64,000 nt of DNA from Gottfriedia acidiceleris. GTDB lineage: Bacteria > Bacillota > Bacilli > Bacillales > Bacillaceae_G. The DNA is taken from assembly GCF_023115465.1 (NCBI RefSeq), contig NZ_CP096034.1, positions 3,968,001 to 4,032,000 of the forward strand. The letters run 5' to 3'. Positions 36,037-50,232 of the stretch are shown here, piece after piece (positions within the stretch are counted from its first letter, which is position 1; every line of letters starts with the position of its first letter). Position numbers and translations under genes: made by a program. The notes beneath the pieces were generated by a model. The model was not told the DNA's origin, did no database searches, and saw only the letters and a program-made list of their open reading frames with translations.

Positions 36037-37212
36037 TTATACAGCTTCTATGATAATTGAAACTCCTTGCCCGCCACCTACACATAAAGTTGCTAAACCA
36101 ATTTGTTTCTTTTGACGTATTAATTCATGTAATAAAGTAACTACAATTCTTGTACCTGAACAACCGATTGGATGTCCTAATGCAATAGCTCCTCCATTTA
36201 CATTAATAATTTCTTCTGATATATTTAATTCTTTATTTACTGCTAGTACTTGTGCAGCGAATGCTTCATTTATCTCTGCCAATTCTATATCCTGTATCGT
36301 TAGATTTGCTCGTTGCAGTGCTTTTTGTGTTGCTGGAACTGGTCCAATTCCCATAATCGAAGGAGCAACAGCAGCGCTTGCTACCGAACGAATTTTGGCA
36401 AGCGGTTTTAAACCATATTCTCGAACTGCTTGTTCAGATGCAACAATGACTGCAGCAGCACCATCATTTAATGATGAAGCGTTTCCAGCTGTCACTGTTC
36501 CATTCTCTTTAAAAGCTGCTTTAAGAGTTTGTAGTTTCTCTAGACTAGTATTTTTTATGTTCTCATCTTCTTTAAATAAAATGGGACCTTTTTTAGTTTT
36601 TATTGTAACTGGAACAATTTCATTTTCAAATTTGCCCTGCTCCCTAGCTCTAATCGCTTTTTGCTGACTTTCTAAAGCAAAAATGTCTTGCTCCTCGCGC
36701 GATATACGATAGTCTTCAACTAAATTTTCAGCTGTAACTCCCATATGATAACCTTCTATTGCACAGTGAAGCCCGTCATGAAAAATTGCATCTACTGTCC
36801 TTAAATCTCCCATTTTTTGTCCCCATCTTGCATTCATGACTAAATGTGGGACATTACTCATACTTTCCGTCCCTCCAGCAATTACAACATTGGAATCACC
36901 AGCTAGTATTTGATGATAGGCTAATGTAATTGCTCGCAGTCCGGATGCACATTGTTTATCTATTGTAATGGCTGGAATCGAGACAGGTAAACCAGCATTA
37001 ATTGCGGCTTGTCTTGCTGGATTTCCTTTTAGTCCTGATTTTAGTACATTACCGATTACTACTTCATCAACACATTCTGCGGATATGCCAGATCGTTGCC
37101 ATACCTCTTTAACAACTGTTGATGCTAGTTGTACTGCACCTACATCTTTTAATGAGCCTCCGAAACACCCAATTGGAGTTCTGAGCGCTTCAACTAAATA
37201 TACATTCTGCAT
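36037..37212 (-). CDS. Thiolase (acetyl-CoA C-acyltransferase)
   Basis: This 391-residue thiolase has the nucleophilic cysteine in DKQCASGLRA (about residue 88), NEAFAAQ near 315, GHPIGCSG with His and Cys near 345-350, and CVGGGQG at the C-terminus. All catalytic residues are present. It cleaves beta-ketoacyl-CoA or condenses acetyl-CoA. It follows an SDR gene by 44 bp and shares its promoter of the LysR element family (38098-38168). In the regulon it could perform the final chain cleavage after the acyl-CoA ligase and dehydrogenase steps. Confidence 0.92.
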   Translation of the reverse strand: MQNVYLVEALRTPIGCFGGSLKDVGAVQLASTVVKEVWQRSGISAECVDEVVIGNVLKSGLKGNPARQAAINAGLPVSIPAITIDKQCASGLRAITLAYHQILAGDSNVVIAGGTESMSNVPHLVMNARWGQKMGDLRTVDAIFHDGLHCAIEGYHMGVTAENLVEDYRISREEQDIFALESQQKAIRAREQGKFENEIVPVTIKTKKGPILFKEDENIKNTSLEKLQTLKAAFKENGTVTAGNASSLNDGAAAVIVASEQAVREYGLKPLAKIRSVASAAVAPSIMGIGPVPATQKALQRANLTIQDIELAEINEAFAAQVLAVNKELNISEEIINVNGGAIALGHPIGCSGTRIVVTLLHELIRQKKQIGLATLCVGGGQGVSIIIEAV

Positions 37213-37256
37213 TCACGATCCCTCTCTTCGTTATATCTTTATCTCAAATGTGGTCC

Positions 37257-38039
37257 TTACACTTTTTCCTCGATCATCTTTCGGATATAAGTAGTTACCC
37301 ACTTCCTTGGCAGTATTCCAACAGATTTTGCCATCAGTTTATTTTTAAAGCCTGGAATGATCACAGTTTTGTTTTTCATTAAGCCTTCATAACCACACTT
37401 GGCAACTGCTTTAGGGTCCATTAGGTTTTTTATGAAAATTTTTGTTCCTGTTGAAGCAAGTCCCTCAGTAAGTGGTGTCTTTGTTGACGGGGGACATAGT
37501 ACACTAACTTGAACCCCGGTACTTTTTAGTTCTTCGGCTATCGCTTCTGTAAACGATAAAACATATGATTTACTTGCCCCATACATCGACATCCGTGGAG
37601 TTGGTTGAAAAGCTGCCGTTGAAGCAATATTTAAAATTTTACCGTGATTTCGCTTAATCATTTCATCCGCTATAAGTCTAGTTAAATAAGTTAAGGAAAT
37701 CATATTCAGCTGTAAACATTCTATTTCTTTCTTAATATCTAATTCTGTCATTAACCCTAATCCGCCCGCTCCGGCGTTATTAATCAATATATCTATATTG
37801 ATTCCTTCCCTTTTTAGGTATGTATACAAGCTCTCTACGGTTTCATGATTACTTAGATCACCGACAAATGTATTGACTTCTATTCCGTATTCCTTTTTTA
37901 AAAAACCAGCTTGTTTTTCCAACAATAACTCATCTCTAGCAACTAAAACTAAATTATAGCGATGTCCTGCGAAGATCTTTGCAAATTCCAATCCAATACC
38001 TTTTGTAGCGCCTGTAATTAACACTGTTTCAGCTGGCAT
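37257..38039 (-). CDS. Short-chain dehydrogenase, classical type
   Basis: This 260-residue oxidoreductase has the cofactor motif TGATKGIG (9-16), NNAG, catalytic Ser in NIASTAA and the YxxxK motif in YGASKSY. All catalytic residues are present. The C-terminal part (GFKNKLMAKSVGILPRKWVT) is typical of membrane-associated SDRs of the DltE/YqjQ group. A longer reading upstream to 38108 has no ribosome site and overlaps the promoter. The ATG at 38039 follows GGAGG. It is the first gene of the SDR-thiolase operon. Confidence 0.88.
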   Translation of the reverse strand: MPAETVLITGATKGIGLEFAKIFAGHRYNLVLVARDELLLEKQAGFLKKEYGIEVNTFVGDLSNHETVESLYTYLKREGINIDILINNAGAGGLGLMTELDIKKEIECLQLNMISLTYLTRLIADEMIKRNHGKILNIASTAAFQPTPRMSMYGASKSYVLSFTEAIAEELKSTGVQVSVLCPPSTKTPLTEGLASTGTKIFIKNLMDPKAVAKCGYEGLMKNKTVIIPGFKNKLMAKSVGILPRKWVTTYIRKMIEEKV

Positions 38040-38097
38040 TTTTAGAAGAACCTCCTCATTTTTAAATATTCTAAATTTTAAAAATAATATATAACTA

Positions 38098-38168
38098 ATT
38101 ATACTCATAAGTAATAGTTAAATAAAATTAAAGAATTTAATTTACAAGTAAGTCTTGCTTATATTCAA
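38098..38168 (-). promoter_or_regulatory. LysR-regulon promoter B (SDR-thiolase)
   Basis: The 47-bp element occupies 38122-38168, with the palindrome AATTAAAGAATTTAATT at 38126-38142. Eighteen bases separate it from the -10 box TATAAT (- strand) at 38098-38103. The -35 region is poor, suggesting an activator-dependent promoter. Confidence 0.75.
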
Positions 38169-38196
38169 AAATCTTAAGATTGTTATTCATAAGAAA

Positions 38197-38234
38197 AGAG
38201 AATCCTTTCGTCACTGGACGTTTTTAGATTCTCT
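38197..38234 (-). terminator. Terminator of cupin gene
   Basis: The stem AGAGAATC/GATTCTCT has a 22-base loop and TTTTCTT on the - strand. It separates the cupin gene from the SDR-thiolase promoter. Confidence 0.6.
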
Positions 38235-38250
38235 CTTCGTACACTATTTT

Positions 38251-38727
38251 TTAAAATTTAGTCACATCAACAGGTTCGATACCTTCAGCTGCACAATATT
38301 CATAGTATCTATTTAGAAATGTTTCCCAATTATCTCTAGCAAGAATTTCGCCATTCTCACCGATGTAATCCAATGTTCCTTCTACAATATTAAAGGTAAT
38401 AACATCTTCGTCACCAACAGCTGTAGGTGTATGTTTCGATCCAGCAGGCTCATAAACAACGTCACCTGGTTTAGATATCCAAGACTCTTCTAGATATCTC
38501 CACGTTCCTTGAACGGTATATACAATAACTGTTCCAGGATGGAAATGTGCAGGAAGCTGCATTTTCGCAGGTACATATAATAATGTAAGAGTTTGTCCTG
38601 TTACAGGGTTTGCTTTAAGTAATTTAAACTTTGAATCTCCAAAATAAGGAATCCAAGGCAACTCATCTACATTAATATTTCCAGCATGGTGTACTACTAC
38701 TTCTTTTACATCCTTTACATTACTCAC
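38251..38727 (-). CDS. Cupin, 2,4'-dihydroxyacetophenone dioxygenase family
   Basis: This 158-residue single-domain cupin has the first metal motif in AHFHPGTVIVYTVQG (two His and a later Glu/Thr position) and the second in GSKHTPTAVG. Members of this family cleave 2,4'-dihydroxyacetophenone oxidatively, but many homologues are untested. Whether the iron ligands are complete cannot be settled by eye. The start is GTG at 38727 with AGAGGGGA. It has its own promoter of the LysR element family and may act on an aromatic or alpha-hydroxyketone intermediate. Confidence 0.8.
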   Translation of the reverse strand: MSNVKDVKEVVVHHAGNINVDELPWIPYFGDSKFKLLKANPVTGQTLTLLYVPAKMQLPAHFHPGTVIVYTVQGTWRYLEESWISKPGDVVYEPAGSKHTPTAVGDEDVITFNIVEGTLDYIGENGEILARDNWETFLNRYYEYCAAEGIEPVDVTKF

Positions 38728-38825
38728 TTATATCCCCTCTTCCAACTTATGTTTTTTTAAATTCGTCTAGAGTAGTTCCTTACCTCGGTAAGCTAACTAA
38801 AAACTATTTAGAATTTGTTATTATC

Positions 38826-38896
38826 AGTATATTTATAATTTTCTGTAAAGTAAAATTAGTATTTTTAACTTGTATTTAAGTTTGGCTAATGTACAT
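38826..38896 (-). promoter_or_regulatory. LysR-regulon promoter E (cupin)
   Basis: The most diverged copy of the 47-bp element lies at 38850-38896 (start GTAAAATTAGT). The -10 box TATACT (- strand) is at 38826-38831, again 18 bp away. It lies between the SDR stop and the cupin start. Confidence 0.65.
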
Positions 38897-38918
38897 TGCT
38901 AAGTTACTTTGAAGAAAA

Positions 38919-39707
38919 TTACTTAGCACCAAGACCACCATCAAGAACTAATATTTGTCCTGTACAATAGTCAGATGCTGCTGAAGCAAAGTAAAGGGTT
39001 GCACCTACCAAATCAAGATCACTACCTAATCTTCTAAGTGGAACTTGAGTAGCAATGAATGGACCTGCTTTATGTACAAGAGTTCCCGGTATTTCTGGGT
39101 TATTCATTCCTGTAGTGAAAACTCCTGGAGCTATTGAGTTTACATTAACGCCGTGGCGCCCCCATTTCACTGCTAAGTCCTTCGTTAAAGTCATAACGGC
39201 TCCCTTACTCGTTGTATATCCGACAGAATCCACAGCTTCAGGATCAACACCTTTAAATCCTATACTAGAAGAAATGTTGATGATTTTTCCATATTCGTTT
39301 TTAATCATATGTTTACCAACTGCCTGACACATTAAAAAAGTTCCTGTCACATTCGTATCAAGCATAGATTGCCATTGTTCTAAAGGCATTTCTATTGCTG
39401 GCGTTTCAAAAACAGTTCCACTACTATTTACTAAAATTTCGATGCTTCCAAATTGAGAAACAGCTTTTTCCAATCCCTTTTCAATTGATTCAGGACTAGT
39501 TACATCTAATGATATAGCTAAAGCTCGTCTGCCTAACGCCTCTATTTCTTTCACGACTTCTTCGCAAACTTCTAAACGCCTAGAACAAACTACTACATTT
39601 GCCCCCGCTTCTGCTAAAGCTATTGCCATTACACGTCCTAATCCACTTCCTCCTCCCGTAACGATCGCTGTCTTTCCTGTTAAATCAAATAATTGTGTTA
39701 ATGTCAT
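38919..39707 (-). CDS. Short-chain dehydrogenase, FabG-like
   Basis: This 262-residue SDR has TGGGSGLGR (18-26) for cofactor, NSSG in place of NNAG, catalytic Ser in NISSSIG and YxxxK in YTTSKGA. The C-terminus GQILVLDGG is typical of FabG-like enzymes. It is a candidate for hydroxyacyl or alcohol oxidation in the regulon. AGGAGGG precedes the ATG at 39707. Its promoter lies in the region shared with the divergent LysR gene. Confidence 0.9.
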   Translation of the reverse strand: MTLTQLFDLTGKTAIVTGGGSGLGRVMAIALAEAGANVVVCSRRLEVCEEVVKEIEALGRRALAISLDVTSPESIEKGLEKAVSQFGSIEILVNSSGTVFETPAIEMPLEQWQSMLDTNVTGTFLMCQAVGKHMIKNEYGKIINISSSIGFKGVDPEAVDSVGYTTSKGAVMTLTKDLAVKWGRHGVNVNSIAPGVFTTGMNNPEIPGTLVHKAGPFIATQVPLRRLGSDLDLVGATLYFASAASDYCTGQILVLDGGLGAK

Positions 39708-39765
39708 TCTACTATCCCTCCTAAAATTAAGAATATTCTAATTTTTTAAAATCTTATTGATATTG

Positions 39766-39836
39766 ATTATACATATAAATTATAATGAAAAAAAATTAAA
39801 GATTTTAATGTGTAAGTTAGTATCACTAATATTCAA
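39766..39836 (-). promoter_or_regulatory. LysR-regulon promoter C (SDR / divergent LysR gene)
   Basis: The 47-bp element is at 39790-39836 with AATTAAAGATTTTAATG at 39794-39810. The -10 box TATAAT (- strand) is at 39766-39771, 18 bp away. The element ends 14 bp before the LysR start, so binding would also repress the regulator gene. Confidence 0.78.
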
Positions 39837-39850
39837 AAAAGGGGACAACC

Positions 39851-40756
39851 ATGAATATTGAACAATTAATCTATATTGTTGAAGTCGCAAAATACAGTTC
39901 CTTGTCAGTAGCTGCACAAAATTTACATGTAACACAGTCAACTATTAGCCAGTCCATAACTAACTTAGAAAAAGAGCTTGAAATTAAAGTATTTAAACGT
40001 TCCAGAGGACATGGTGCTGTTCCAACTGATGAGGGAAGAGTCATTTTAAAACTTGCTTATGAGGTTCAAAAAAAAATTGAAGAAATAAAAGAGTCAGCTA
40101 AATTATTTAACTCTAACGAGATCGGTGAACTAAAAATCTCTTCTTTACCTGGTTTAATGACATTTCTCGTTAAAGCAATCTCTATATTTAGTCATGATTA
40201 TCCTCATGTAAATCTTGAGGTTACTGAAAAAAGTGGTACATCAGTGATTGATGATGTTAGACAGCATAAGACTGATTTTGGGCTAATTACCTATTCAAGT
40301 GATTTAGGGGTAAATATGGAAGGGATCGCTTTTGAAGCACTCCTTGATGGAAAGCAAAAGGTATACGTTTCAAAGCATTCTCCTTTAGCCATTCTTGGTT
40401 CTGTAACCCCAGAAGACATTTTCGATCAAACCCTCGTCATCTATAAAGGCGAATTAATGCAATATTTTATCCAAGATTTTTTTAACAAATATAAACCTTT
40501 GAAAATTCTATTTACAACAAATAATATGGCTGGACTTCTCCAAGCCATCAATGAAAATTTGGCGATTACATTTGCTCCTGATTTTGTCATGCAAAATTAT
40601 CCATCCGTCATTAATGGTGATATTATTCCCATCGATTTAGTGAACCATAGTACTGTTAACATTTCTTTAGGATTAGTTCGATCAGAAGATAAACATTTAT
40701 CTACATATGCTAACAAATATATTCATTTTCTAAAATCGGAAATTATAAATAATTAA
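39851..40756 (+). CDS. LysR-family regulator, proposed activator of the catabolic regulon
   Basis: This 301-residue LysR protein has the winged helix SVAAQNLHVTQSTISQSIT (residues 18-36) and a two-lobed effector domain. It sits in the middle of the catabolic region. Promoter C lies in its own upstream region, and five more copies of the same element occur within 10.5 kb. LysR activators usually bind a T-N11-A palindrome upstream of a promoter with a poor -35, which is the pattern seen here. The ribosome site AAAGGGG precedes the ATG. The effector is unknown. Confidence 0.9.
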   Translation: MNIEQLIYIVEVAKYSSLSVAAQNLHVTQSTISQSITNLEKELEIKVFKRSRGHGAVPTDEGRVILKLAYEVQKKIEEIKESAKLFNSNEIGELKISSLPGLMTFLVKAISIFSHDYPHVNLEVTEKSGTSVIDDVRQHKTDFGLITYSSDLGVNMEGIAFEALLDGKQKVYVSKHSPLAILGSVTPEDIFDQTLVIYKGELMQYFIQDFFNKYKPLKILFTTNNMAGLLQAINENLAITFAPDFVMQNYPSVINGDIIPIDLVNHSTVNISLGLVRSEDKHLSTYANKYIHFLKSEIINN

Positions 40757-40761
40757 AAAAA

Positions 40762-40804
40762 GAGAAGCAACTGCGTTCAAAGTGGACGCAGTTGCTTCTC
40801 CTTT
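40762..40804. terminator. Bidirectional terminator LysR / small Cys protein
   Basis: A 15-bp stem GAGAAGCAACTGCGT / ACGCAGTTGCTTCTC with T-rich tracts on both strands serves the + strand LysR gene and the - strand MFS transcript. Confidence 0.9.
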
Positions 40805-40830
40805 TATTCGAATCTATTAGTCATCTCGAA

Positions 40831-41007
40831 CTAATATTTCTCAGTTTTGACCTCTGTTTTCATATCGATGTGGTCATCAGTATAAGTTTCAGTTATTTTA
40901 TCCTGGCAACTCCAGCAGTTACTACGATTTCTCTCCATAATGGATAATTCTTCATGACATTCTACACAACAATCAATTCCATCAAAGACTTTTTTATTTT
41001 TACACAT
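40831..41007 (-). CDS. 58-residue zinc-ribbon-like protein
   Basis: This 58-residue reading frame begins MCKNKKVFDGIDCCVECHEE and has a second cysteine pair in NCWSCQDK. The spacing C-x2-C ... C-x2-C suggests a zinc ribbon. The C-terminal 25 residues are charged. A strong GAGGAGGAAAG ribosome site precedes the ATG at 41007, which supports a real gene. It starts 29 bp after the MFS stop, so it should be cotranscribed with that transporter, and it ends before a strong terminator. I know no family for it; a regulatory or chaperone role is a guess. Confidence 0.75.
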   Translation of the reverse strand: MCKNKKVFDGIDCCVECHEELSIMERNRSNCWSCQDKITETYTDDHIDMKTEVKTEKY

Positions 41008-41036
41008 TATCTTTCCTCCTCGATTAATTCATACTT

Positions 41037-42326
41037 TTATATAATCACTTGTTCCTCTACTTTGATCGTAGTGCTTGGTTGCTTAGCAGGACGCACGGCG
41101 ATCCAAAAAATTAATCCGAAAACAAACATGACTAAAGACGTCACCAAAAATCCGTAACCATATCCTATTGACTCAGTTCCTGCATTTTCAATAAAATTAC
41201 CAAATATAACAGGAGCAATAATACTCGTTGAACTTGATAAAGCAACATATGTCCCTTGAGCTTTTCCAATGTTTTTAGGTGAAAAGAACTCCATTAACAT
41301 TGCTGGCGCTAGTGAAAGAATGACAATTGCAAAACCTGGTGCAAGGATGAAAAACAAGATGGAAATTGCACTTGAATTTGCGATACTTCCAATATATAAA
41401 CAAATAGCGGAGATCATCATTGAAATTCCTGAAAGATTTATTCTTGCTTTACGAATATCCTGAGTTTTGCGGTAAATGCGGTCTGAAATTAGGGCAAATG
41501 AAATTTGGCATATTGCTGCAAAGAGAAAAGGTAAAGACACTGCCATTTTTAATGTTTTACCGTCAAAATGTTGAACTTTAGAAAAGTATGCTGGAAACCA
41601 AACCGCTTGGACAGACAATAACCAATATGCACAGCCTGCGCAAATAGCGGTGAAAATAAAGTTCTTAGAAAAAATATGCGGTAGAAAACGCTTCCACGAA
41701 ACCTTATTTGGGATCACTGTATTTTTATCCTCTTGCTCATATGTAGAGATTCCTTTATCTTTTGGGCTCTCTTTGCCAAAAATCACCCATAAAAGTAGAA
41801 CAATACATCCGACTGCTCCCATTGCTATAAAAGCGGCTCTCCAACTATATTGATTGATTAGTGAGATTAATAGCGGAGAAGCAATTGCAGGTCCAATTGT
41901 AGCTCCAAAGAGCACTGCACCAAAACCAATACCATGTCTGTGTTTAGGAAACCATTTTCCAATTATTGAAGTTGAAATAGAAATAGCTGGTCCTTCCCCT
42001 GCTCCCAATAGCATTCTTGAAAGCATAAGTAGAGATAAACTAGATACAAAAGGTGTTGTAAATTGAACGATTAACCATATTAACATAATCCAAGTAAACA
42101 TCTTCTTCGTGTTTTTAGAATCAGCCATGCCACCAAGAATGAAAGAAGAGATCGTAAAGAACCAAAAAAACGAGCTTCCAACTAATCCCCATTGAGATGG
42201 ACTTAAATGTAATTCTTTCATTAACGGAACCGAAACTAAACCTATGATGATTTTATCAACTTGATTGACCATACCAGAAGCAACTAGAATTAATAAAATA
42301 ATCCAAGAATATTTTGGTGTATTCAA
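41037..42326 (-). CDS. MFS transporter 1 (ACS-like)
   Basis: This 429-residue transporter of the major facilitator superfamily has twelve hydrophobic segments and resembles anion:cation symporters for organic acids. The motif GGMADSKNTKK lies after helix 2, and GEGPAISISTSIIGKWFP is the helix 4-5 signature. The in-frame reading from 42401 is too long. The TTG at 42326 has AGGGTGA upstream and gives MNTPKYSWI, matching MSRTPKYAW of its paralogue at 45886, which is also 429 residues. It is driven by promoter D and is followed by the zinc-ribbon-like gene. Confidence 0.9.
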   Translation of the reverse strand: MNTPKYSWIILLILVASGMVNQVDKIIIGLVSVPLMKELHLSPSQWGLVGSSFFWFFTISSFILGGMADSKNTKKMFTWIMLIWLIVQFTTPFVSSLSLLMLSRMLLGAGEGPAISISTSIIGKWFPKHRHGIGFGAVLFGATIGPAIASPLLISLINQYSWRAAFIAMGAVGCIVLLLWVIFGKESPKDKGISTYEQEDKNTVIPNKVSWKRFLPHIFSKNFIFTAICAGCAYWLLSVQAVWFPAYFSKVQHFDGKTLKMAVSLPFLFAAICQISFALISDRIYRKTQDIRKARINLSGISMMISAICLYIGSIANSSAISILFFILAPGFAIVILSLAPAMLMEFFSPKNIGKAQGTYVALSSSTSIIAPVIFGNFIENAGTESIGYGYGFLVTSLVMFVFGLIFWIAVRPAKQPSTTIKVEEQVII

Positions 42327-42427
42327 AAAAATCACCCTTTCTTTCCTCCTAATTATTGAACATCTCCAAAAAGCAACCTGTTTTCTAACTAAAACGTTCA
42401 TAACAAATTAACAATTTTACTGTTTTG

Positions 42428-42441
42428 ATAAAGCGCTTACA
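42428..42441. promoter_or_regulatory. cre-like site upstream of MFS transporter 1
   Basis: The - strand sequence TGTAAGCGCTTTAT matches the CcpA cre consensus at 12 of 14 positions. It lies between promoter D and the transporter start, a position suited to roadblock catabolite repression. Confidence 0.5.
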
Positions 42442-42531
42442 AATTGCTGGATCACCTTCTCTACCCTTTCCCCCTTTTTTTACATAGAGTCATTTCATAA
42501 CTTTAATTACATATCATTATTCTTTATTTTT

Positions 42532-42602
42532 ATTATATTCATAATTTTCAGTTAAATAAAATTAAACATATTTACTTGTATGTAAATACTACTAATATAT
42601 GA
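42532..42602 (-). promoter_or_regulatory. LysR-regulon promoter D (MFS transporter 1)
   Basis: The 47-bp element lies at 42556-42602 (starting ATAAAATTAAAC), with -10 box TATAAT (- strand) at 42532-42537 and 18 bp between. The predicted leader to the transporter start is about 200 bases. Confidence 0.72.
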
Positions 42603-42638
42603 AATATGTACCAATGTACATGGGAAATTTTAACACCA

Positions 42639-42709
42639 CATTATATTAGCACAATTAAATTACAAATTAAAATCTTTAATTTTATATAAATATTATTTAT
42701 AGGTAGAAT
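42639..42709 (+). promoter_or_regulatory. LysR-regulon promoter F (SDR 42780)
   Basis: This is the only copy on the opposite strand, and its gene is also reversed. The element spans 42639-42685, with palindrome AATTAAAATCTTTAATT at 42665-42681. The -10 box TAGAAT is at 42704-42709, 18 bp away. It lies back to back with promoter D. Confidence 0.75.
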
Positions 42710-42779
42710 ATATATAGAAATACGTAGTAATCATCCAACTTTTTTGTATTACTAGTGAATTAGAACTGGAGGCTGAACA

Positions 42780-43553
42780 ATGGACTTAAAGTTATCGGGA
42801 AAAAAGGCACTGATTGTAGGGGGTAGCCGTGGTATTGGTAAAGCTGTTGCACGCCAACTAGCACTTGAAGGTGTAGATTGTACGATTTGTTCAAGAAATG
42901 AATCCACATTAAACATTGCCGCAGAGGAACTGGCACAAGAAACTAGTCGAAATATTTATCCAATCGTGGCAGATACTACCGATCCAGATTCAATCTTAAA
43001 TCTAGTAGAAAAATCAGCGGAAGTAATGGGAAGCATAGATATATTGATCAACAGTGGAGCCCGTGTTGGTGGACATGAACCAGAGGACTTTAATAGTATT
43101 AAAGAAGAACTTATTATAAAGGATTTTGAAGAAAAATATATGGGGTATTTTCGTAGTATTAGAGCTGTTGCGCCATATATGATTGAAAACAAGTGGGGAA
43201 GAATTATTAATATTAGTGGATTAGCTGCTAGGATTGGCGGCAATTACTTTAGCTCTGGTCCTCGTAACGCTTCTGTCGTCCATTTAACAAAATCTGCATC
43301 AATGGAATTAGGAAAGCATGGAATTAATGTCAATGCTATTTATCCGGGAATTGTTGATACTGAAACGTTTAGAGTTAAAGTGACTAATGAGGAAGCAATT
43401 CAACAAGTAAAATCACTAAATTCTCTCGGTCGCTTGATTACTCCAGAGGAGATTGCTTACGTCGTTACTTTCCTAGCATCTCCTTTATCAGCATCAATTA
43501 CTGGAGAAGTAATACCGGTAACTGGCGGCATCGGAAATACCGTTTATTTCTAA
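42780..43553 (+). CDS. SDR-family protein lacking the YxxxK motif
   Basis: This 257-residue SDR has the cofactor motif GGSRGIGKA (14-22), NSGARV in place of NNAG and Ser146 in NISG. Where YxxxK is expected, the sequence reads S159-G-P-R-N163, aligned by the following ASVVHLTK. The catalytic Tyr and Lys are thus replaced by Ser and Asn. Some SDR groups with a GxRN motif exist, so this may be a divergent enzyme or a non-catalytic partner. TGGAGG precedes the ATG. It has its own promoter of the regulon type. Confidence 0.85.
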   Translation: MDLKLSGKKALIVGGSRGIGKAVARQLALEGVDCTICSRNESTLNIAAEELAQETSRNIYPIVADTTDPDSILNLVEKSAEVMGSIDILINSGARVGGHEPEDFNSIKEELIIKDFEEKYMGYFRSIRAVAPYMIENKWGRIINISGLAARIGGNYFSSGPRNASVVHLTKSASMELGKHGINVNAIYPGIVDTETFRVKVTNEEAIQQVKSLNSLGRLITPEEIAYVVTFLASPLSASITGEVIPVTGGIGNTVYF

Positions 43554-43613
43554 TATACTTATTTGAAATATTTTTACTGTCACATAGTTTATAAGTTAAT
43601 AGTTGAAAGAAAT

Positions 43614-43640
43614 AGAGCCTCACAATTTTTGAGGCTCTTT
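43614..43640 (+). terminator. Terminator of SDR 42780
   Basis: The stem AGAGCCTC/GAGGCTCT has an 11-base loop followed by a short TTTAA tract. It lies between the + strand SDR and the - strand hydrolase. Confidence 0.7.
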
Positions 43641-43693
43641 AAGTGTGTAGACAAATTCCAAAACTTGATTCTCTGACTAATTGTAAACATTAG

Positions 43694-44659
43694 TCAACAG
43701 TATGAACGTAAAAAATTATCAATTTTGGAAACCGTCGATTCGATATTGTTCGAAAAAATTGACATATGTGCAAAATAGCCGTGAATCATTCCAGGTTCAC
43801 AAGCATATTCAACTTGTACTCCAAACTTTTTCAACCGATTGGCATAGGCTGCTCCTTCATCTCGTAGTACATCATTTTCTGCCGTAATAATTAATGCTTT
43901 CGGAAGGCCACTTAAGTCTTTTGCTATTAAAGGAGAAGCGTACTCATCTGTCTTATCCTCTTCATTTCTTAAATAATGAGTTCGGAACCAAATTAGCTGT
44001 TCACGATCTAAACCAAAACCTTTTGCAAACATTTGATGTGATTCTGTATTAAACTCAAGATTTGTTGGGGGATAGATTAAAACTTGACCAACAATGCTAG
44101 GACCCTTTCTGTCTCTAGCAATCATTGTTACGACTGTAGCAAGATTTCCACCTACACTATCTCCACCAACGATCAATCTAGTGACATCCCCATTAAAGGA
44201 AATACCATGTTCATAGACCCATTCCAAAGCTGAATATGCATCTTCCACTGCTGTCGGAAACTTATACTCCGGTGCAAGGCGATAGTTTACGGATACAACT
44301 ATGCTCTGTGTTCTATTAGCAATTATGCGACAGCTTGCGTCCGTCGATTCAATATCTCCAAGTACCCATCCCCCACCATGGTAATATATGAATATTGGAA
44401 AGGGGCCTGAACCTTCTGGTATGTATACTCGACATTTAATTTCCTCATCATTGCTTACCGGAATCATAAAGTCCTCTACTTTTGATAGTGTTTCTAAATT
44501 TATAAGAGGACGTGGTGACTTTGATAACATTTCTCTTACAGTTTTAGGGTCTAGTTCATGAATAGGTGGCATCCGCTTTAATGCATTTAAAAACTTCTCT
44601 GCTTGCGAATCTAACTTTAACAAACTATCAACCTCTCTCACTTTATATAATTCTCCCAT
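43694..44659 (-). CDS. Alpha/beta hydrolase, HSL/Aes-type esterase
   Basis: This 321-residue esterase belongs to the hormone-sensitive-lipase family. The oxyanion motif is YYHGGGWVLG and the nucleophilic serine is in GGDSVGGNLA. The Asp in ITAENDVLRDEG and the His in GMIHGYFAHM complete the triad. It probably cleaves a short-chain ester or lactone. The ATG at 44659 has only a weak ribosome site; an in-frame TTG 36 bases downstream follows AGAGG and may be the true start. No copy of the 47-bp element precedes it, so its link to the regulon is by position only. Confidence 0.88.
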   Translation of the reverse strand: MGELYKVREVDSLLKLDSQAEKFLNALKRMPPIHELDPKTVREMLSKSPRPLINLETLSKVEDFMIPVSNDEEIKCRVYIPEGSGPFPIFIYYHGGGWVLGDIESTDASCRIIANRTQSIVVSVNYRLAPEYKFPTAVEDAYSALEWVYEHGISFNGDVTRLIVGGDSVGGNLATVVTMIARDRKGPSIVGQVLIYPPTNLEFNTESHQMFAKGFGLDREQLIWFRTHYLRNEEDKTDEYASPLIAKDLSGLPKALIITAENDVLRDEGAAYANRLKKFGVQVEYACEPGMIHGYFAHMSIFSNNIESTVSKIDNFLRSYC

Positions 44660-44699
44660 GACCTAAACTTTTAACCCGACCATTAGTCAATTTAAAAGT

Positions 44700-44744
44700 T
44701 AAATGGTGATCTTATTCACGTTATACTTGAATAAAATCACCATT
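44700..44744 (-). terminator. Terminator of the ligase-TauD-MFS-TauD operon
   Basis: The arms AAATGGTGAT and ATCACCATTT, with further TTATTCA/TGAATA pairing inside, form a long hairpin after the TauD-1 stop. The T tract is short, so this may be a processing or stability structure. Confidence 0.7.
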
Positions 44745-44788
44745 TACTAAAATTTTGAAATCACAACAAACTAAATTCCCACAAGTTC

Positions 44789-45787
44789 TTAGCTATTTAT
44801 GGGTGCACCACCAATATAAAACTCAAAACCTGGAGCAATTTTACGACCATTTGGCATCATCAGCCATAATCTTAATAAATGACGTTTTTTATCCTCTTCC
44901 TCGAAATCTTCAAAATGAGTACGTGAATGAAAAACAGTATAATTATTAACGAATTGCATATCTCCTGGTTCCATCATCATATCGATATGGAAGTTTTTAT
45001 CATGAGTAAGGGAATCAATAAAATCAAATGCTTCAATTTCCTCATCCGACAAAAGGATACCAGTTTTCGTTTGTGCTGATTGGACATATTGGCGAATATA
45101 TCTGCAGCTTAATTTACCATCGAAATAGCTAAAGATTGGTGATTGAACAACAGGTGATTGACCTGGCGTTTCCTCTCCGCGAAGGTCATGGGCAAATGAG
45201 CGATAGAGAATTTCAAGATATTCTGGGTGTTTTTCCAGAATTTCATTATAGATAGACATTGCACTTGCGATACTACTTAAACCACCAGATTTTGCTTTAC
45301 GAAGACATAGTAATCCAACCACATCAGCAAGATCTGTATGATAATCAAGATGTACATTTGTTTGGTAACCACGTACTTTTGAATTATCGTTAAAGTCCTT
45401 ACCTACATTTTTAATATGACCTAGTAGTTCGCCATTTTTACTTTGGATGATTGGCAGTCCTAAATGGAGTCCAAGCCCCCAGTAAATGATACTTGCTTCT
45501 TCATCGGAATAACGCTCCATCGGCAATCCACGGATTAGGAGAAAACCTCTTCCATTCTCTAATTCGTCAATAAAGTACTTAATTTCGTCAGCTAGATCAG
45601 GAATTGGAAAATCTTCCTTTTTAAAATCAGGTGCTTTTAATCCCCTTTGTTTAACACATAATACAGCCTTCTCAAGTGCTGCAATTGTTGTATCGGTTAA
45701 AAAATATATCCATGATTCATCTTTAGCAAGATCAATACCTTTCCATGCAGATCTCCCTTGAATTTTTTCATTTAAAATGATTGACAT
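44789..45787 (-). CDS. TauD/TfdA-family dioxygenase 1
   Basis: This 333-residue Fe(II)/2-oxoglutarate dioxygenase has the iron facial triad His150-x-Asp152 (DYHTDL) and His287 in NNYTVFHSR, with 2-oxoglutarate-binding Arg306 in KRHLLRLW. It is about 60 percent identical by eye to TauD-2 upstream in the same operon. Family members hydroxylate or cleave taurine, phenoxyacetates, carnitine precursors and others; the substrate here is unknown. A longer reading to 45832 lacks a ribosome site; the ATG at 45787 follows AAGGAGGGG. It is the last gene of the operon. Confidence 0.88.
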   Translation of the reverse strand: MSIILNEKIQGRSAWKGIDLAKDESWIYFLTDTTIAALEKAVLCVKQRGLKAPDFKKEDFPIPDLADEIKYFIDELENGRGFLLIRGLPMERYSDEEASIIYWGLGLHLGLPIIQSKNGELLGHIKNVGKDFNDNSKVRGYQTNVHLDYHTDLADVVGLLCLRKAKSGGLSSIASAMSIYNEILEKHPEYLEILYRSFAHDLRGEETPGQSPVVQSPIFSYFDGKLSCRYIRQYVQSAQTKTGILLSDEEIEAFDFIDSLTHDKNFHIDMMMEPGDMQFVNNYTVFHSRTHFEDFEEEDKKRHLLRLWLMMPNGRKIAPGFEFYIGGAPINS

Positions 45788-45885
45788 TAAAACCCCTCCT
45801 TCGAAATTGAAGATTACTAATTTAATAGCCAAATATTTAAAACTATTATTTCAACTCATATTTCTAATTACATGTAGATCTTTCT

Positions 45886-47175
45886 TTACCTACTCATTTG
45901 CTCCCCTGACTCGTTTATTACGTTTCTTTGATTTGCGGGATGTACACCAATCCAAAATACGATACCTAAAATCAGCATTCCTAATGAAGAAAAGCCAAAC
46001 GCGTAATTATAACCAATTGCTTCAGTTAGTGCATGTTGGATAAGGTATCCGAAGACTAGTGGAGCAATAATACTAGATATACTTGCAAAGGCAATGAATG
46101 CTCCCTGTGCTTTTCCAATGTTTTCGGGAGAAAAGAACTCCATTAATATAGCGGGAGCAAGCGAAAGAATTACATACGCAAAACCAGGTGCAAGTGTAAA
46201 AAAAACAATAGACATAGTAACTGAATTTACGGTTATCGCTAGATATAGACAAATAGCCGATAACATCATCATGAAACCCGCAAGATTAATTCGGGCTTTA
46301 CGAATATCACCTGTTTTACGGTAAAGACGATCAGATAGCATAGAAAATCCAATTTGGCAAAAAGCTGCAAAAAGAAAAGGCAATGATACCGCTAGTTTTA
46401 AAGTTTGAGAGTCAAACTGTTGGATTTTTGTAAAGTAAGATGGGAACCATACTGCCTGAATGGACAGTAACCAATATGCACAACCACCGCACAAAACAGT
46501 TAATATAAAGTTTTTAGTAAATAGATGCGGAAAAAACTGTCGGATTGATACTTTAGGAAGGCTAGAATTGTGCTCCGTTTGATGAACGGCTGTTAGTCCA
46601 ATTTCTGTTGGACTTTCTTTACCAAAAATTAACCATAAAACTAATACGCTCAGTCCCAGAACACCCATCACTAAAAATGCCGATTTCCATCCATGTTTAT
46701 CAATTAATGATATTAATAATGGAGAAGCAATTGCCGAACCCCCGGTCGTTCCTAAAAGAACCGCACCAAAACCTATACCATGTCTATGCTTTGGAAACCA
46801 TTTCCCCATGATTGCTGTAGAAAGAGCTGGGGCTGGACCTTCACCTAATCCTAAAAACATTCTTGTTATCAAAAGCAAAGTTAGGCTAGAAGCAAAAGGA
46901 GTTGCAAACTGAACAATTAGCCAAACCAATGAAAGCCATGTCAACATTTTTTTCGTATTTTTCGAATCAGCCATTCCTCCAAGTATCAGTGAGGAGAATG
47001 TAAAAAACCAAAAAAATGAACTTCCTACAACTCCCCATTTTGTTGGACTTAAATGTAATTCTTTCATTAAAGGAACGGAAACCAAACCAATGATAATTTT
47101 ATCGACTTGGTTGATCATACCAGTAAGAACTAGAAATAATAAGATTACCCAAGCGTACTTTGGAGTTCTTGACAT
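45886..47175 (-). CDS. MFS transporter 2 (ACS-like)
   Basis: This 429-residue transporter is a close paralogue of the one at 41037, with identical length and shared signatures (KIIIGLVSVPLMKELHLSP). Twelve hydrophobic segments are visible. It lies between the two TauD-type genes in one operon, so each dioxygenase has a transporter nearby. An organic acid is the likely substrate by family. The ATG at 47175 follows GTGAGG. The two transporters may import different but related substrates, or one may export the product. Confidence 0.9.
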   Translation of the reverse strand: MSRTPKYAWVILLFLVLTGMINQVDKIIIGLVSVPLMKELHLSPTKWGVVGSSFFWFFTFSSLILGGMADSKNTKKMLTWLSLVWLIVQFATPFASSLTLLLITRMFLGLGEGPAPALSTAIMGKWFPKHRHGIGFGAVLLGTTGGSAIASPLLISLIDKHGWKSAFLVMGVLGLSVLVLWLIFGKESPTEIGLTAVHQTEHNSSLPKVSIRQFFPHLFTKNFILTVLCGGCAYWLLSIQAVWFPSYFTKIQQFDSQTLKLAVSLPFLFAAFCQIGFSMLSDRLYRKTGDIRKARINLAGFMMMLSAICLYLAITVNSVTMSIVFFTLAPGFAYVILSLAPAILMEFFSPENIGKAQGAFIAFASISSIIAPLVFGYLIQHALTEAIGYNYAFGFSSLGMLILGIVFWIGVHPANQRNVINESGEQMSR

Positions 47176-47205
47176 ACAAATATATCCTCACTTTTCACTA
47201 TTTAA

Positions 47206-47237
47206 GGAACACCCTTTCCAAAAAGGAAAAGGTGTTC
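47206..47237 (-). other. Intercistronic hairpin TauD-2 / MFS-2
   Basis: The arms GGAACACCCTTTCC and GGAAAAGGTGTTC form a hairpin in the 86-bp gap. No T tract follows on the - strand. It may stabilise the upstream message or lower transporter expression. Confidence 0.65.
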
Positions 47238-47261
47238 ACACCCATTCTTACAGAAGTAAAA

Positions 47262-48317
47262 TTACTTTAAAGTTTCAACAATACCGCCCGCGGTTTTATT
47301 ACGAGCAGGTACACCGCCACGACCCGGTTTTCCAGTATTTTCGTCAAAAAACATTGCGAAATCCGGAGAAATTTCACGACCATTTGGCATCGTGAGCCAT
47401 AATCTTAATAAATGACGTTTTTGATCTAATACTTCATAATCTTCGTATTGAGTTCGTGAATGAAGAACCGTATAATTATTTACAAATTGCATATCGCCTG
47501 GCTCGAGCATCATATTAAAATGTAAATTTTCATCATGAAGAAGAGAGTCCAGTAAGTCTAATGCTTCGATTTCAACTTTTGATAACTGGATACCTGTTTT
47601 CGCTTGTGCTGATTCGATAAATAAACGAACATATCGGCAACTTAGTTTTCCATCATAGTAACTAAAAATTGGTGAAGTAAATATTGGTGATTCTCCTGGT
47701 CCTTCTTCTCCTCGGCGGTCAAAGTTAAACGGACGACAAAGTATTCCTAAATATTCAGGGTTCTTCTCTAGAATCTCATTGTAAACTGCCATCGAGCTTA
47801 TAATGCTACTCTCCCCTCCTGATTTCCCTTTTCGAAGACTTAACAAACCTACTACATCAGAACCATCAGCGTGAAAAGGAAGATGCAGTTTCGTTTGGTA
47901 ACCACGAACGTTTGAATTTTCTAAACTAAGTCCTTGATCTCTAACGTGCCCTAATAGCTCACCATTAGCATTTTGCGAAACTGGAGTACCCATATGAAGG
48001 CCAAGGCCCCAATAAATGATGCTTGCTTCTTCATCTGTATATCTTTCAATCGGTAAACCTCGAATTAATAGAAATCCTCTTCCATTCTCAAGTTCTTCAA
48101 CAAAGTAATCAATTTCATTTAAAAGATTTGGCACTTGGAAGTCTTCTTTGTTAAAATTTGGTGCTTTTAACCCCTTTTGTTTAATACGGGCTAGTGCATT
48201 TTCAAGCTCAACAATTGTTTCCTTGGATAAGTAATAAATCCAAGAATCATCTTTTGCTAAGTCTGTTCCTTTCCAAGCTACTGGCCCTTTAACCTTTTCC
48301 TTTAAAATTGTTGACAT
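47262..48317 (-). CDS. TauD/TfdA-family dioxygenase 2
   Basis: This 351-residue paralogue of TauD-1 keeps the triad His149-x-Asp151 (PFHADG) and a distal His in NNYTVLHSR, plus the Arg of KRHLLRLW. It carries a C-terminal extension (GRGGVPARN...) that is shortened in TauD-1. The residues next to the iron motif differ between copies (DYHTDLAD against PFHADGSD), which suggests different substrates. The adjacent ATG at 48320 is closer to GGGAGG; 48317 gives better spacing. It lies 37 bp after the acyl-CoA ligase gene. Confidence 0.88.
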   Translation of the reverse strand: MSTILKEKVKGPVAWKGTDLAKDDSWIYYLSKETIVELENALARIKQKGLKAPNFNKEDFQVPNLLNEIDYFVEELENGRGFLLIRGLPIERYTDEEASIIYWGLGLHMGTPVSQNANGELLGHVRDQGLSLENSNVRGYQTKLHLPFHADGSDVVGLLSLRKGKSGGESSIISSMAVYNEILEKNPEYLGILCRPFNFDRRGEEGPGESPIFTSPIFSYYDGKLSCRYVRLFIESAQAKTGIQLSKVEIEALDLLDSLLHDENLHFNMMLEPGDMQFVNNYTVLHSRTQYEDYEVLDQKRHLLRLWLTMPNGREISPDFAMFFDENTGKPGRGGVPARNKTAGGIVETLK

Positions 48318-48354
48318 CATGAATCCTCCCTTTATGAATGAATGATTTATTTGT

Positions 48355-49869
48355 TTACTTTACTTCAGTCAATTCTCTTAACTCTCTACGCAAAATCTTC
48401 CCAGTTGAATTCTTTGGTAGCTCTTTACAAAATTCTACATATTTAGGAAGCTTGTATTTAACTAGCTTATCTTTACAAAATTGAATGATGTCGTTATCTG
48501 TAAACTGTTCATCATTAACTACGACGTATGCTTTTACACTTTCTCCGTATTCTTTATTAGGTACACCAACTACTGCTGCTTCTATAACTGCAGGATGTTG
48601 ATAGAGTACTTCTTCCACTTCACGAGGATAAACATTGTAACCTCCAACAATAATCATGTCCTTCTTTCGGTCAACAATGTAGATATATCCATCTTCGTCC
48701 ATTGTTGCGAGATCACCGGTGTAAAACCACCCGTTTTTAAAAGCGTCCAATGTAGCTTCTTGCATCCCTAAATATCCCTTCATTACATTTGGTCCTTGAA
48801 CAACTAATTCTCCAACCTCACCTATTGGCAATTCTTCTCCAAATTTATCTACTACTTTGCTTTGAACAGTGGGAATATTTCTACCGATTGAACCTGGTTT
48901 CCTAATTCCTTTTAACGGATTAATTGCAACAAGTGGCGCTGTTTCCGAAAGTCCATATCCCTCTAATATAGGTACGTTGAACTTACTTTCAAATTTTTGC
49001 AGAAGCTCTACTGGAATCGAAGCACCACCTGAAATACAAATACGAATGGATTTAAAATGCTCTGACGAAGCTTCGGGTAATTGATTGATAAAATTGTACA
49101 TCGTAGGTACTCCTGCAAATACAGTGGCATTGCTTTTTTGAATTGTATTGACAACATCGTCAGGACTGAATTTAGGCTGAATTAAAACTGTTGAGCCACA
49201 AGCAATCGGTGCGTTCAAACAAACTGTCATACAGAAAACATGAAACATTGGCAGAACAGCAACTACTCGGTCGTTTTCATCCAGTTCAAGCAATTTCGAA
49301 ATGGAATCTGCATTCGATGCCAAATTTCGATGTGTTAACATTGCACCCTTTGGTTTACCTGTAGTACCCGAAGTGTACAGAATAACGGCTAGATCTTCTT
49401 GATCAACGAATGGACTTGCACTTACACTTGTACTTGATTTCATAAGGTGCTCCCATGTCCATTCCTGTTTCTTTGCTTCTGTATAAATGACTACATTTAG
49501 ATTAATTAACTGTTTCTTAACTTCTGATAATATTGGCTCAACAGATATATGAGCAATAACCGCTTTTACTTGACTATTTTCCAATATGTAGCTGATTTCA
49601 TCTTGGGTAAACAAAGGATTAATTGGAACAACAAATGCACCTAATTGCAAAATTCCATAGTATGCAATAAGAAACTCTGGGCTATTTCCTATTAAAAGGG
49701 CAACTCCATCTCCTTTGCTGATTCCTTGTGCAGACATTCCTACAGCAAATTGATTTACAAGCTGATTTAATTTCCTATATGTAACACATTGGTCACCATA
49801 CATGTAAGCGATACTATCCGGGAAATTAATTGCGCTTCTATTTAAGTTTTCGTATAAGTTATTACTCAT
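48355..49869 (-). CDS. AMP-forming acyl-CoA ligase
   Basis: This 504-residue ANL-superfamily enzyme activates a carboxylic acid to its CoA thioester. The P-loop is YTSGTTGKPKGA. Other motifs are EGYGLSETAP, the WFYTGDLATMDEDGY hinge, and the catalytic Lys in LPKNSTGKILRREL near the C-terminus. Length and motifs fit long- or medium-chain and aromatic acyl ligases; the acid is not identified. It is the first gene of the four-gene operon and is driven by promoter A. A GGGGGG tract lies before the ATG at 49869. Confidence 0.92.
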   Translation of the reverse strand: MSNNLYENLNRSAINFPDSIAYMYGDQCVTYRKLNQLVNQFAVGMSAQGISKGDGVALLIGNSPEFLIAYYGILQLGAFVVPINPLFTQDEISYILENSQVKAVIAHISVEPILSEVKKQLINLNVVIYTEAKKQEWTWEHLMKSSTSVSASPFVDQEDLAVILYTSGTTGKPKGAMLTHRNLASNADSISKLLELDENDRVVAVLPMFHVFCMTVCLNAPIACGSTVLIQPKFSPDDVVNTIQKSNATVFAGVPTMYNFINQLPEASSEHFKSIRICISGGASIPVELLQKFESKFNVPILEGYGLSETAPLVAINPLKGIRKPGSIGRNIPTVQSKVVDKFGEELPIGEVGELVVQGPNVMKGYLGMQEATLDAFKNGWFYTGDLATMDEDGYIYIVDRKKDMIIVGGYNVYPREVEEVLYQHPAVIEAAVVGVPNKEYGESVKAYVVVNDEQFTDNDIIQFCKDKLVKYKLPKYVEFCKELPKNSTGKILRRELRELTEVK

Positions 49870-49949
49870 TAAGTGAATCCCCCCCTTTCAACCGCTTAAA
49901 AAGCGTTCATAAATTAACTATTTTGAATATTTAAAATATTACTACACTA

Positions 49950-50020
49950 AGTATACTCATAAATAAAAATGAAATAAAATTAAAGATTTTAATTTGTATG
50001 TAAGTCTAACTAATATTAAG
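49950..50020 (-). promoter_or_regulatory. LysR-regulon promoter A (ligase operon)
   Basis: The 47-bp element is at 49974-50020 with the perfect-arm palindrome AATTAAAGATTTTAATT at 49978-49994. The -10 box TATACT (- strand) is at 49950-49955, 18 bp away. The palindrome is identical to that of promoter F. Confidence 0.78.
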
Positions 50021-50055
50021 ATTGTTGTTCAATAATAAGGTCCAATTCAGCTAGC

Positions 50056-50113
50056 ACTAAACTAAAAAAAACAGAGCCCAAACTTAAAAAGGCTCTGTTT
50101 TTTTAGTTAGTTT
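50056..50113. terminator. Terminator-like hairpin between divergent promoters
   Basis: A long stem (CTAAAAAAAACAGAGCC / GGCTCTGTTTTTTTAG) lies in the gap between the ligase promoter and the YeiH gene, which are divergent. It has no gene to terminate on either side, so it may insulate the promoters or end a short unrecognised RNA. Confidence 0.7.
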
Positions 50114-50232
50114 ATAGCTTCTTTTTCTAATTATCGTATTTACTTATCATAACTATAATAATAATTTATTTTCCTTATGATAATTGATTCGATACGATAA
50201 CTAATATAGAACGCCCTAAGGAGATGAACAAG

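What the first reader, a model, noticed from the sequence alone, without database searches (positions are those of the whole stretch)
38098..50020. Six co-oriented promoters share a 47-bp element at fixed distance from the -10 box
Elements at 49974, 38122, 39790, 42556, 38850 (+ strand copies for - strand genes) and 42639-42685 (reverse copy for the + strand gene 42780) align without gaps over 47 bp. By hand, 20 of 47 columns are invariant, including AAAATTA and CTnAT. In every case exactly 18 bp separate the element from TATAAT, TATACT or TAGAAT, and the -35 region is poor. The core AATTAAA-N3-TTTAATT fits a LysR T-N11-A site. This points to one activator controlling genes spread over 12 kb, probably the LysR protein at 39851. 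I know of no described regulon with this motif.
Basis: seen in the sequence. Interest (0 to 1): 0.86.

Follow-up and report, generated by a model that had tools for sequence, protein, structure and literature searches.

The report
LysR-controlled promoters of one pathway
Six promoters in a Bacillus-like bacterium carry the same long switch sequence at the same distance from the start signal, and comparison with relatives indicates that one neighbouring LysR-type regulator uses it to turn on a whole breakdown pathway; a new example of a well-known kind of control.

Summary
Six 46-bp sites align without gaps (21 invariant columns), each with its -10 box at one fixed distance. In the 4.69-Mb genome (Gottfriedia, by its named relatives) they are the only full-length strong matches, and they precede the six units (11 genes) that with lysR make up a catabolic cluster. 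In 299 genomes sampled from the order, the 8 with a close LysR orthologue are exactly the 8 with strong sites; outside that sample three carriers of a LysR orthologue have only weak sites or none. Sites stay before the same genes after rearrangement and, in three relatives, also precede a distant paralogue of one target (45 and 55 kb from lysR in two, another contig in the third). The assignment to the LysR protein at 39851 is well supported, without binding data. A lysR promoter abuts the site in 15 of 17 comparable loci, so lysR is probably self-repressed there. A new LysR regulon of a known kind; effector and substrate unknown.

The parts
49950..50017 (-). Promoter of the acyl-CoA ligase/TauD2/MFS2/TauD1/HSL operon: box1 50001-50013, box2 49980-49992, box3 49960-49972, -10 TATACT 49950-49955
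   Evidence: best full-length match in the genome, E 5e-10
42532..42599 (-). Promoter of MFS1: box1 42583-42595, box2 42562-42574, box3 42542-42554, -10 TATAAT 42532-42537
42642..42709 (+). Promoter of SDR3, divergent from the MFS1 promoter: box1 42646-42658, box2 42667-42679, box3 42687-42699, -10 TAGAAT 42704-42709
39766..39833 (-). Promoter of SDR2, in the gap between SDR2 and lysR: box1 39817-39829 (perfect TTAGT-N3-ACTAA), box2 39796-39808, box3 39776-39788, -10 TATAAT 39766-39771
38826..38893 (-). Promoter of the cupin gene: box1 38877-38889, box2 38856-38868, box3 38836-38848, -10 TATACT 38826-38831
   Evidence: a weak version of this site is the one kept in L100 and L101
38098..38165 (-). 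Promoter of SDR1 and thiolase: box1 38149-38161, box2 38128-38140, box3 38108-38120, -10 TATAAT 38098-38103
39757..39786 (+). Probable lysR promoter TTGATA-N18-TATAAT (11 of 12), ending one base short of the 46-bp element; its -10 overlaps box 3
   Evidence: same -35, spacer and -10 in 15 of 17 loci with SDR2 divergent from lysR (window, L085-L098; not L115, L116); 15 of all 22 lysR upstream regions read
39851..40756 (+). LysR-type regulator, 301 aa; proposed regulator of all six promoters
   Evidence: Pfam HTH_1 and LysR_substrate; co-occurrence with the sites
36037..37212 (-). Thiolase (target, second gene of the SDR1 unit)
   Evidence: TIGR01930 above cut-off
37257..38108 (-). SDR1 oxidoreductase (target); first ATG of the ORF lies before the predicted transcript start, real start probably the internal ATG near 38039
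   Evidence: start inferred from sequence and from 260-aa alignments to several relatives
38251..38727 (-). Cupin protein (target)
   Evidence: Pfam Cupin_7; PDB 3ebr E 1e-43, 2,4'-dihydroxyacetophenone dioxygenase 5bpx E 2e-13
38919..39707 (-). SDR2 oxidoreductase (target)
41037..42401 (-). MFS1 transporter (target); start probably near 42335
   Evidence: matches to MFS transporter families, all below their cut-offs; 75-80% identical to partial MFS2-type proteins of L107 and L108
42780..43553 (+). SDR3 oxidoreductase (target)
43694..44659 (-). HSL-type esterase (target, last gene of the ligase operon)
   Evidence: LipP1 model above cut-off
44789..45832 (-). TauD1, TauD/TfdA-family dioxygenase (target)
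45886..47175 (-). MFS2 transporter (target)
   Evidence: Pfam MFS_1
47262..48320 (-). TauD2, TauD/TfdA-family dioxygenase (target)
   Evidence: PDB FrbJ 5eqn E 3e-68
48355..49869 (-). Acyl-CoA ligase (target, first gene of the operon)

Best explanation
The six sites are operators of one pathway-specific LysR-type regulator, the protein at 39851-40756. A LysR tetramer anchors with one dimer on box 1 (TTAGT-N3-ACTTA, T-N11-A, centre -64) and with the other on box 2 (ATTAAA-N3-TTTAAT, centre -43, against the weak -35 region) or box 3 (about TAAnT-N3-AnTTA, centre -23, in the -35/-10 spacer). Without effector it holds boxes 1 and 3 and blocks RNA polymerase; with effector it shifts to boxes 1 and 2 and recruits polymerase to a promoter that has a good -10 and no real -35. 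This switches on six transcription units (11 genes: acyl-CoA ligase, two TauD-type dioxygenases, two MFS transporters, esterase, three SDRs, cupin, thiolase). The SDR2-side operator abuts and partly overlaps the divergent lysR promoter, so LysR represses its own gene. Shown: sites, spacing, conservation, co-occurrence, genes behind the sites, boxes 1 and 2. Suggested: box 3, self-repression, the operons. Inferred from the family: tetramer, effector, activation, sliding.
For: Six full-length sites in the genome, all in this cluster. Seven genomes of the genus with a 92-100% identical LysR each have six sites at E <= 0.002, all in the lysR region (some also have one or two partial matches elsewhere, E 0.03 or worse); five genus members without an orthologue have no match below E 0.08. 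Order sample: 8 of 299 genomes have LysR at E <= 1e-110, and exactly those 8 have sites at E <= 1e-5; the other 11 genomes listed have best E 3e-4 or worse, and the 9 of these 11 that I fetched lie inside coding frames. 92 of 96 tabulated sites have the -10 at exactly 16 bp; in three genomes not used before, 14 of 15. Among the 92, T-N11-A holds in 90 for box 1 and 92 for box 2; in the 15 new sites 13 and 15. Sites follow the same genes after rearrangement and precede an SDR2 paralogue 45 kb (G041) and 55 kb (G042) from lysR, and on another contig in G040. lysR promoter TTGATA-N18-TATAAT in 15 of 17 loci with SDR2 divergent from lysR.
Against: No binding, footprint, expression or effector data. 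Three of 21 orthologue carriers lack strong sites: G004 (best E 0.001), G047 (best E 1.6e-4) and G049, the genome of L100, with none at E <= 0.05. Co-occurrence cannot separate lysR from the other cluster genes; what singles it out is L100 and L101, where of the 17 window proteins I searched (two other regulators among them) LysR is the only regulator beside the cupin site, and those two sites are weak (13.9 and 21.8 bits). Box 3 holds as T-N11-A in 88 of 92 but only 9 of 15 new sites. Four of 96 sites break the spacing, three of them degenerate copies before TauD1 in Peribacillus. No site was found before the cupin gene of L115. One good site in L099 has no target gene close by. The overlapping lysR promoter is missing in L115, L116, L114, L099, L100 and L101, so self-repression by this arrangement is not general.
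Confidence: 0.88

Rival explanations
1. Another regulator encoded elsewhere binds the sites and LysR is a bystander in the cluster.
For: The genome has 22 further matches to this LysR, some of them fragments, including a LysR 37% identical at window 26199-27083, and a TetR protein lies at 52336-52959.
Against: Strong sites were found only where the close orthologue of the 39851 LysR occurs. The five genus members with only 36-43% identical paralogues have no full sites. In L100 and L101 neither the window's TetR nor its other LysR was found beside the cupin site. The motif has LysR-type T-N11-A dyads.
Confidence: 0.06
2. The sites are the operators of this LysR, but it acts as a plain repressor released by the effector, not as an activator.
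For: Box 3 lies in the -35/-10 spacer and the boxes abut the lysR promoter, positions that also fit repression.
Against: All six target promoters have a good -10 but a poor -35, and boxes 1 and 2 at -64 and -43 hold in 90 and 92 of 92 sites; both point to activation.
Confidence: 0.12
3. The six promoters are recent duplicates of one promoter and the similarity is only shared ancestry.
For: The cluster contains paralogous genes (two MFS, two TauD, three SDR), and in G106 lysR and its operator are duplicated together.
Against: Conservation falls off after the -10. Copies kept element, spacing and dyads in Neobacillus, Peribacillus and Sporosarcina while gene order changed. Duplication may be how copies arose, but does not explain their retention.
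Confidence: 0.04

Closest known systems
BenM/CatM at PbenA and PcatB (Acinetobacter), LysR-type regulators
   Same: Three sites; site 1 a T-N11-A dyad; regulator at sites 1+3 represses, at 1+2 activates (PMC6628147, passages).
   Different: BenM site core is ATAC-N7-GTAT and PbenA has a good -35; here the boxes are AT-rich (TTAGT-N3-ACTTA; ATTAAA-N3-TTTAAT), the -35 is poor, and one cluster has six near-identical operators.
DntR and the general LysR scheme RBS (-65) with ABS' and ABS'' (PMC4730206, passages)
   Same: Boxes at -64, -43 and -23 resemble one high-affinity site near -65 and two proximal sites, given there as near -10 (ABS') and -35 (ABS'').
   Different: That paper (2016) says no conserved ABS'' motif had been deduced for LTTRs; here box 2 is conserved at base level across more than 90 sites.
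CidR (NCBIfam NF047520) and other Bacillota LysR regulators
   Same: CidR is the best curated model for this protein, matched nearly end to end.
   Different: 122.7 bits against a cut-off of 415: not CidR. GltC, AlsR and CcpC models score lower still.
CatR/ClcR regulons of Betaproteobacteria reconstructed by comparison (PMC6449761, passages)
   Same: T-N11-A palindrome, regulator genes divergent from the regulated operons, RBS plus adjacent ABS.
   Different: Other motif, other phylum, aromatic pathways; here pathway and effector are unknown.

Membership tests
LysR-type transcriptional regulator (the protein at 39851) | N-terminal HTH_1 and C-terminal LysR_substrate domains, about 300 aa | tested here: met
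   Pfam HTH_1 3.8e-16 and LysR_substrate 2.4e-24, both above the curated cut-offs
LysR-type operator | T-N11-A dyad near -65 (RBS) | tested here: met
   T5/A17, centre -64, in 90 of 92 sites; 13 of 15 new sites; start of transcription inferred from the -10
LysR-type operator | Second site near -35 (ABS) | tested here: met
   T26/A38, centre -43, in 92 of 92 and 15 of 15 sites
LysR-type operator | Third, alternative site nearer the -10 | tested here: inconclusive
   T46/A58, centre -23, in 88 of 92 but 9 of 15 new sites; spacer-column shuffles of the six window sites reached the observed dyad at this centre in 29 of 5000 and at any of six centres in 134 of 5000
LysR-type regulon | Regulator gene divergent from a target with the operator between them | tested here: met
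   SDR2/lysR in the window, L085-L098, L115 and, with a wider gap, L116; ligase/lysR in L114. Not so in L099, L100, L101
LysR-type regulon | Negative autoregulation | not testable with these tools
   lysR promoter abuts the operator in 15 of 17 loci with SDR2 divergent from lysR; effect not measured
LysR-type regulon | Binding by the regulator and effector-dependent activation | not testable with these tools
   needs footprinting and reporter assays
CidR, cidABC activator | NCBIfam NF047520 above its cut-off | tested here: not met
   122.7 bits, cut-off 415

The most novel reading that the evidence does not exclude
All three subsites of this operator are sequence-specific T-N11-A boxes of related but graded design at 20-21 bp spacing (-64, -43, -23), and their fixed spacing across about 100 natural promoters and several genera gives the conserved activation-site (ABS'') code said in 2016 to be lacking for LysR regulators, written in the DNA as a built-in sliding-dimer ladder.
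Probability: 0.3. Interest if true: 0.5.

Novelty: new member of a known kind. Interest (0 to 1): 0.38.

Why it matters
It gives a complete, testable LysR regulon in a little-studied group of Bacillus relatives: regulator, 11 target genes and six operators, with clear predictions. So many near-identical operators at one fixed geometry make a natural data set for asking how LysR regulators read their promoter-proximal sites and move between them. The regulon also ties an uncharacterised pathway together (two TauD-type dioxygenases, cupin, esterase, CoA ligase, thiolase, with a CoA-transferase pair in one Neobacillus relative), which helps in finding its substrate.

Tried and rejected
Rfam scan of 34000-54000: nothing above gathering scores, so no known RNA element explains the conservation. 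Weak matches in 11 other genomes of the order: I fetched 9 of the 11 (one match each; G067, G220 and a second match of G092 not fetched); all nine lie inside coding frames, eight of them in one conserved 642-649-aa frame that I take from recall to be threonyl-tRNA synthetase, so they are chance. A generic sigma-70 scan finds no more promoter-like sites than shuffles do (46 against 50.9), so it is no evidence by itself; it only pointed to the lysR promoter, which I then checked by conservation.

The third box was tested three ways and left as inconclusive. Dyads centred at 35, 41 and 22 score as high as or higher than boxes 1 and 3 in places (35 above both in the 92 sites; 41 level with box 2, and 22 level with boxes 1 and 3, in the 15 new sites); I take them as by-products of overlapping A/T tracts, which is a judgement. 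What sets boxes 1 and 2 apart is the near-invariant T and A, not the dyad score alone. A name for the pathway was sought by families, solved structures and papers without success.

Rows dropped: one search gave 112 matches; 89 were kept for the table of 96 (with 6 window sites and 1 from L101) and 23 left out (opposite-strand shadows, partial or short matches; the best of them is L097 10941-10967, model 1-27 only, E 3e-4). Four of the 89 (L094 18800, L095 18403, L098 17938, L098 9008) had E above 0.1 and were kept for their position before a target gene; three of these are among the four with another spacing. The best -10 was chosen among 20 offsets by a simple score of my own. Of 16 matches, 15 were tabulated and one partial (E 0.39) dropped; two of the 15 have identical sequence. 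Of the extra full-length sites outside the 20-kb loci I examined seven; G040:C156:16555, G041:3671112 and G044:2247771 were not examined, nor was G122:C3:26920. The CoA-transferase genes were read only in L096, not in L091 or L093, which have a similar site. The whole-genome model searches score only the best candidates of a first look (150 a genome; 20, with stricter filters), so weak sites can be missed.
Full report
What is there. The window lies in a 4.69-Mb single-contig genome. Window 36037-49869 holds a cluster of thiolase, SDR1, cupin, SDR2, LysR, MFS1, SDR3, esterase, TauD1, MFS2, TauD2 and acyl-CoA ligase.

The element. Six sites of 46 bp align without gaps, 21 columns invariant. Five lie on the - strand and one on +, so the title's 'co-oriented' is not exact, but each points at its gene. 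A matrix from five sites always ranks the sixth above every non-site position of the window; the lowest left-out score is 27.1 bits, while the highest score over thirty simulated 64-kb sequences (third-order Markov, full matrix) is 14.8. A sequence-only model R1 finds in the whole genome exactly six full-length matches at E <= 5e-7, all in this cluster; the next match is partial at E 0.035. The six sites precede six transcription units (inferred from strand and gaps) that together take in the 11 genes of the cluster other than lysR.

Anatomy. Taking the first base of the -10 as -12 (inferred, not mapped), the element runs from -74 to -29. Over 92 sites with standard spacing, positions T5 and A17 occur together in 90 and T26 and A38 in 92. 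These are two T-N11-A dyads, TTAGT-N3-ACTTA centred at -64 and ATTAAA-N3-TTTAAT centred at -43. The -35 region is poor and lies at the edge of box 2. A third dyad, T46/A58 centred at -23, is present in 6 of 6 window sites and 88 of 92, but in only 9 of 15 sites from three genomes not used before, against 13 and 15 of 15 for boxes 1 and 2. Shuffling the spacer columns of the six sites reached the observed dyad at that centre in 29 of 5000 trials, and at any of six centres in 134 of 5000. Some other centres score as well by dyad alone (35, 41, 22). I treat box 3 as suggested.

Spacing. In three further genomes it is 14 of 15. Many of these are orthologues, so the counts are not independent; the independent part is six promoters in one genome and the persistence of the spacing in several genera.

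Who binds. Close LysR orthologues and strong sites go together. In the 13 genomes of the genus, the seven with a LysR of 92-100% identity each have six sites, all in the lysR region; the one with 69% (G004) has one weaker site (E 0.001) beside lysR; five without an orthologue have none below E 0.08. In 299 genomes sampled from the order, 8 have LysR at E <= 1e-110 and the same 8 have sites, best E <= 5e-8 in each. The other 11 genomes with any match at E <= 0.01 have best E from 3e-4 to 0.008, and the nine of them I read are inside coding frames. Five of the 8 are of the window's genus, so this is about four independent lineages. In ten further genomes reached through LysR loci, eight have a best site at E <= 1e-5, G047 (Peribacillus frigoritolerans) 1.6e-4, and G049 (Lysinibacillus xylanilyticus) none at E <= 0.05. 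Over all 21 orthologue carriers, then, 18 have strong sites and 3 (G004, G047, G049) do not.

Rearrangement test. In Neobacillus, Peribacillus and Sporosarcina globispora loci gene order and content differ, yet sites still stand before SDR1, cupin, SDR2, SDR3, MFS or TauD2-MFS, and the ligase operon. Three genomes (Neobacillus sp. DY30 and two named Bacillus sp.) have a site with the standard spacing before a paralogue of SDR2 (68-69% identical to SDR2), 45 kb from lysR in G041, 55 kb in G042, and on another contig in G040 (in G041 the hexamer is TATGAT). In L096 a further unit of two CoA-transferase genes stands behind a site. In L114 the operator beside lysR stands before the ligase, not SDR2, and a second lysR copy has its own copy of the operator. 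Against this: no site was found before the cupin gene of L115, and one site of L099 has no target gene close by. In L100 (L. xylanilyticus) and L101 (G004), within the roughly 20 kb read, only lysR and the cupin gene of the cluster are shared (L101 has in addition a 32% SDR match), with one weak site before the cupin gene and a -10 at the same spacing. The L100 site rests on position, since a genome-wide search does not list it.

lysR itself. TTGATA-N18-TATAAT, the best promoter-like match of the region, ends one base short of the element, its -10 overlapping box 3. It is found with the same spacer in 15 of 17 loci where SDR2 is divergent from lysR (window, L085-L098), not in L115 or L116, nor in the other five lysR upstream regions read (L099, L100, L101 and two of L114). 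LysR on boxes 2 and 3 would lie over the -10 and start of lysR. Self-repression is therefore likely there; it is not general by this arrangement.

Comparison with what is known. A paper on DntR states that LysR tetramers use an RBS near -65 and two proximal sites near -10 and -35, and that activation shifts the protein between these (PMC4730206, passages). A paper on CatM and BenM describes sites 1 and 3 in repression and 1 and 2 in activation (PMC6628147, passages). The anatomy here fits that scheme. NCBIfam models of named Bacillota regulators (CidR, GltC, AlsR, CcpC) all score far below their cut-offs. Open-access full-text searches: Gottfriedia with LysR, 0 papers; three of Neobacillus, TauD, LysR and catabolic gene cluster, 1 paper, on Sphingomonas by its title; LysR regulons in Bacillales, 36 papers of which I saw the 12 listed. 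None of these listings shows this regulon. Subscription papers and regulon databases were not searched.

Pathway. Substrate unknown. TauD2 resembles FrbJ by sequence (5eqn, E 3e-68), the cupin resembles 3ebr and 2,4'-dihydroxyacetophenone dioxygenase. Uptake, ester cleavage, oxidation, CoA activation and thiolysis of an organic acid or ester is a reasonable guess.

Verdict. It is a new LysR regulon of a familiar kind, unusual mainly in the number and uniformity of its operators.

Noticed in passing
L114 (G106:C1:563000-582000), lysR copies at 9585-10487 and 15351-16253: Two LysR copies (72% and 70% identical to the window's) each carry an identical operator next to their start, before different target genes; a possible duplication of regulator plus operator.
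   Followed up: partly
L099 9512-9557 (Sporosarcina globispora): A strong site with a good -10 but no target gene close downstream; its flank resembles the SDR2 promoter, as if SDR2 had moved away and left its promoter behind.
   Followed up: partly
L094 18800, L095 18403, L098 17938 (Peribacillus), L116 8218: Degenerate copies of the element before TauD1 without the standard -10; decaying or differently used sites.
   Followed up: no
L096 11006-12461: Two CoA-transferase subunit genes behind a site in a Neobacillus genome, not found in the window's cluster; may hint at a 3-oxo acid intermediate.
   Followed up: partly
window 26199-27083: A second LysR gene, 37% identical to the one at 39851, 12.8 kb away; no full-length site near it.
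   Followed up: no
window 40762-40800: Terminator-like hairpin (18 pairs) just after lysR.
   Followed up: no
window 52336-55318: TetR-type regulator divergent from a large MMPL-like membrane protein (the latter named from sequence by recall), outside the LysR cluster.
   Followed up: no
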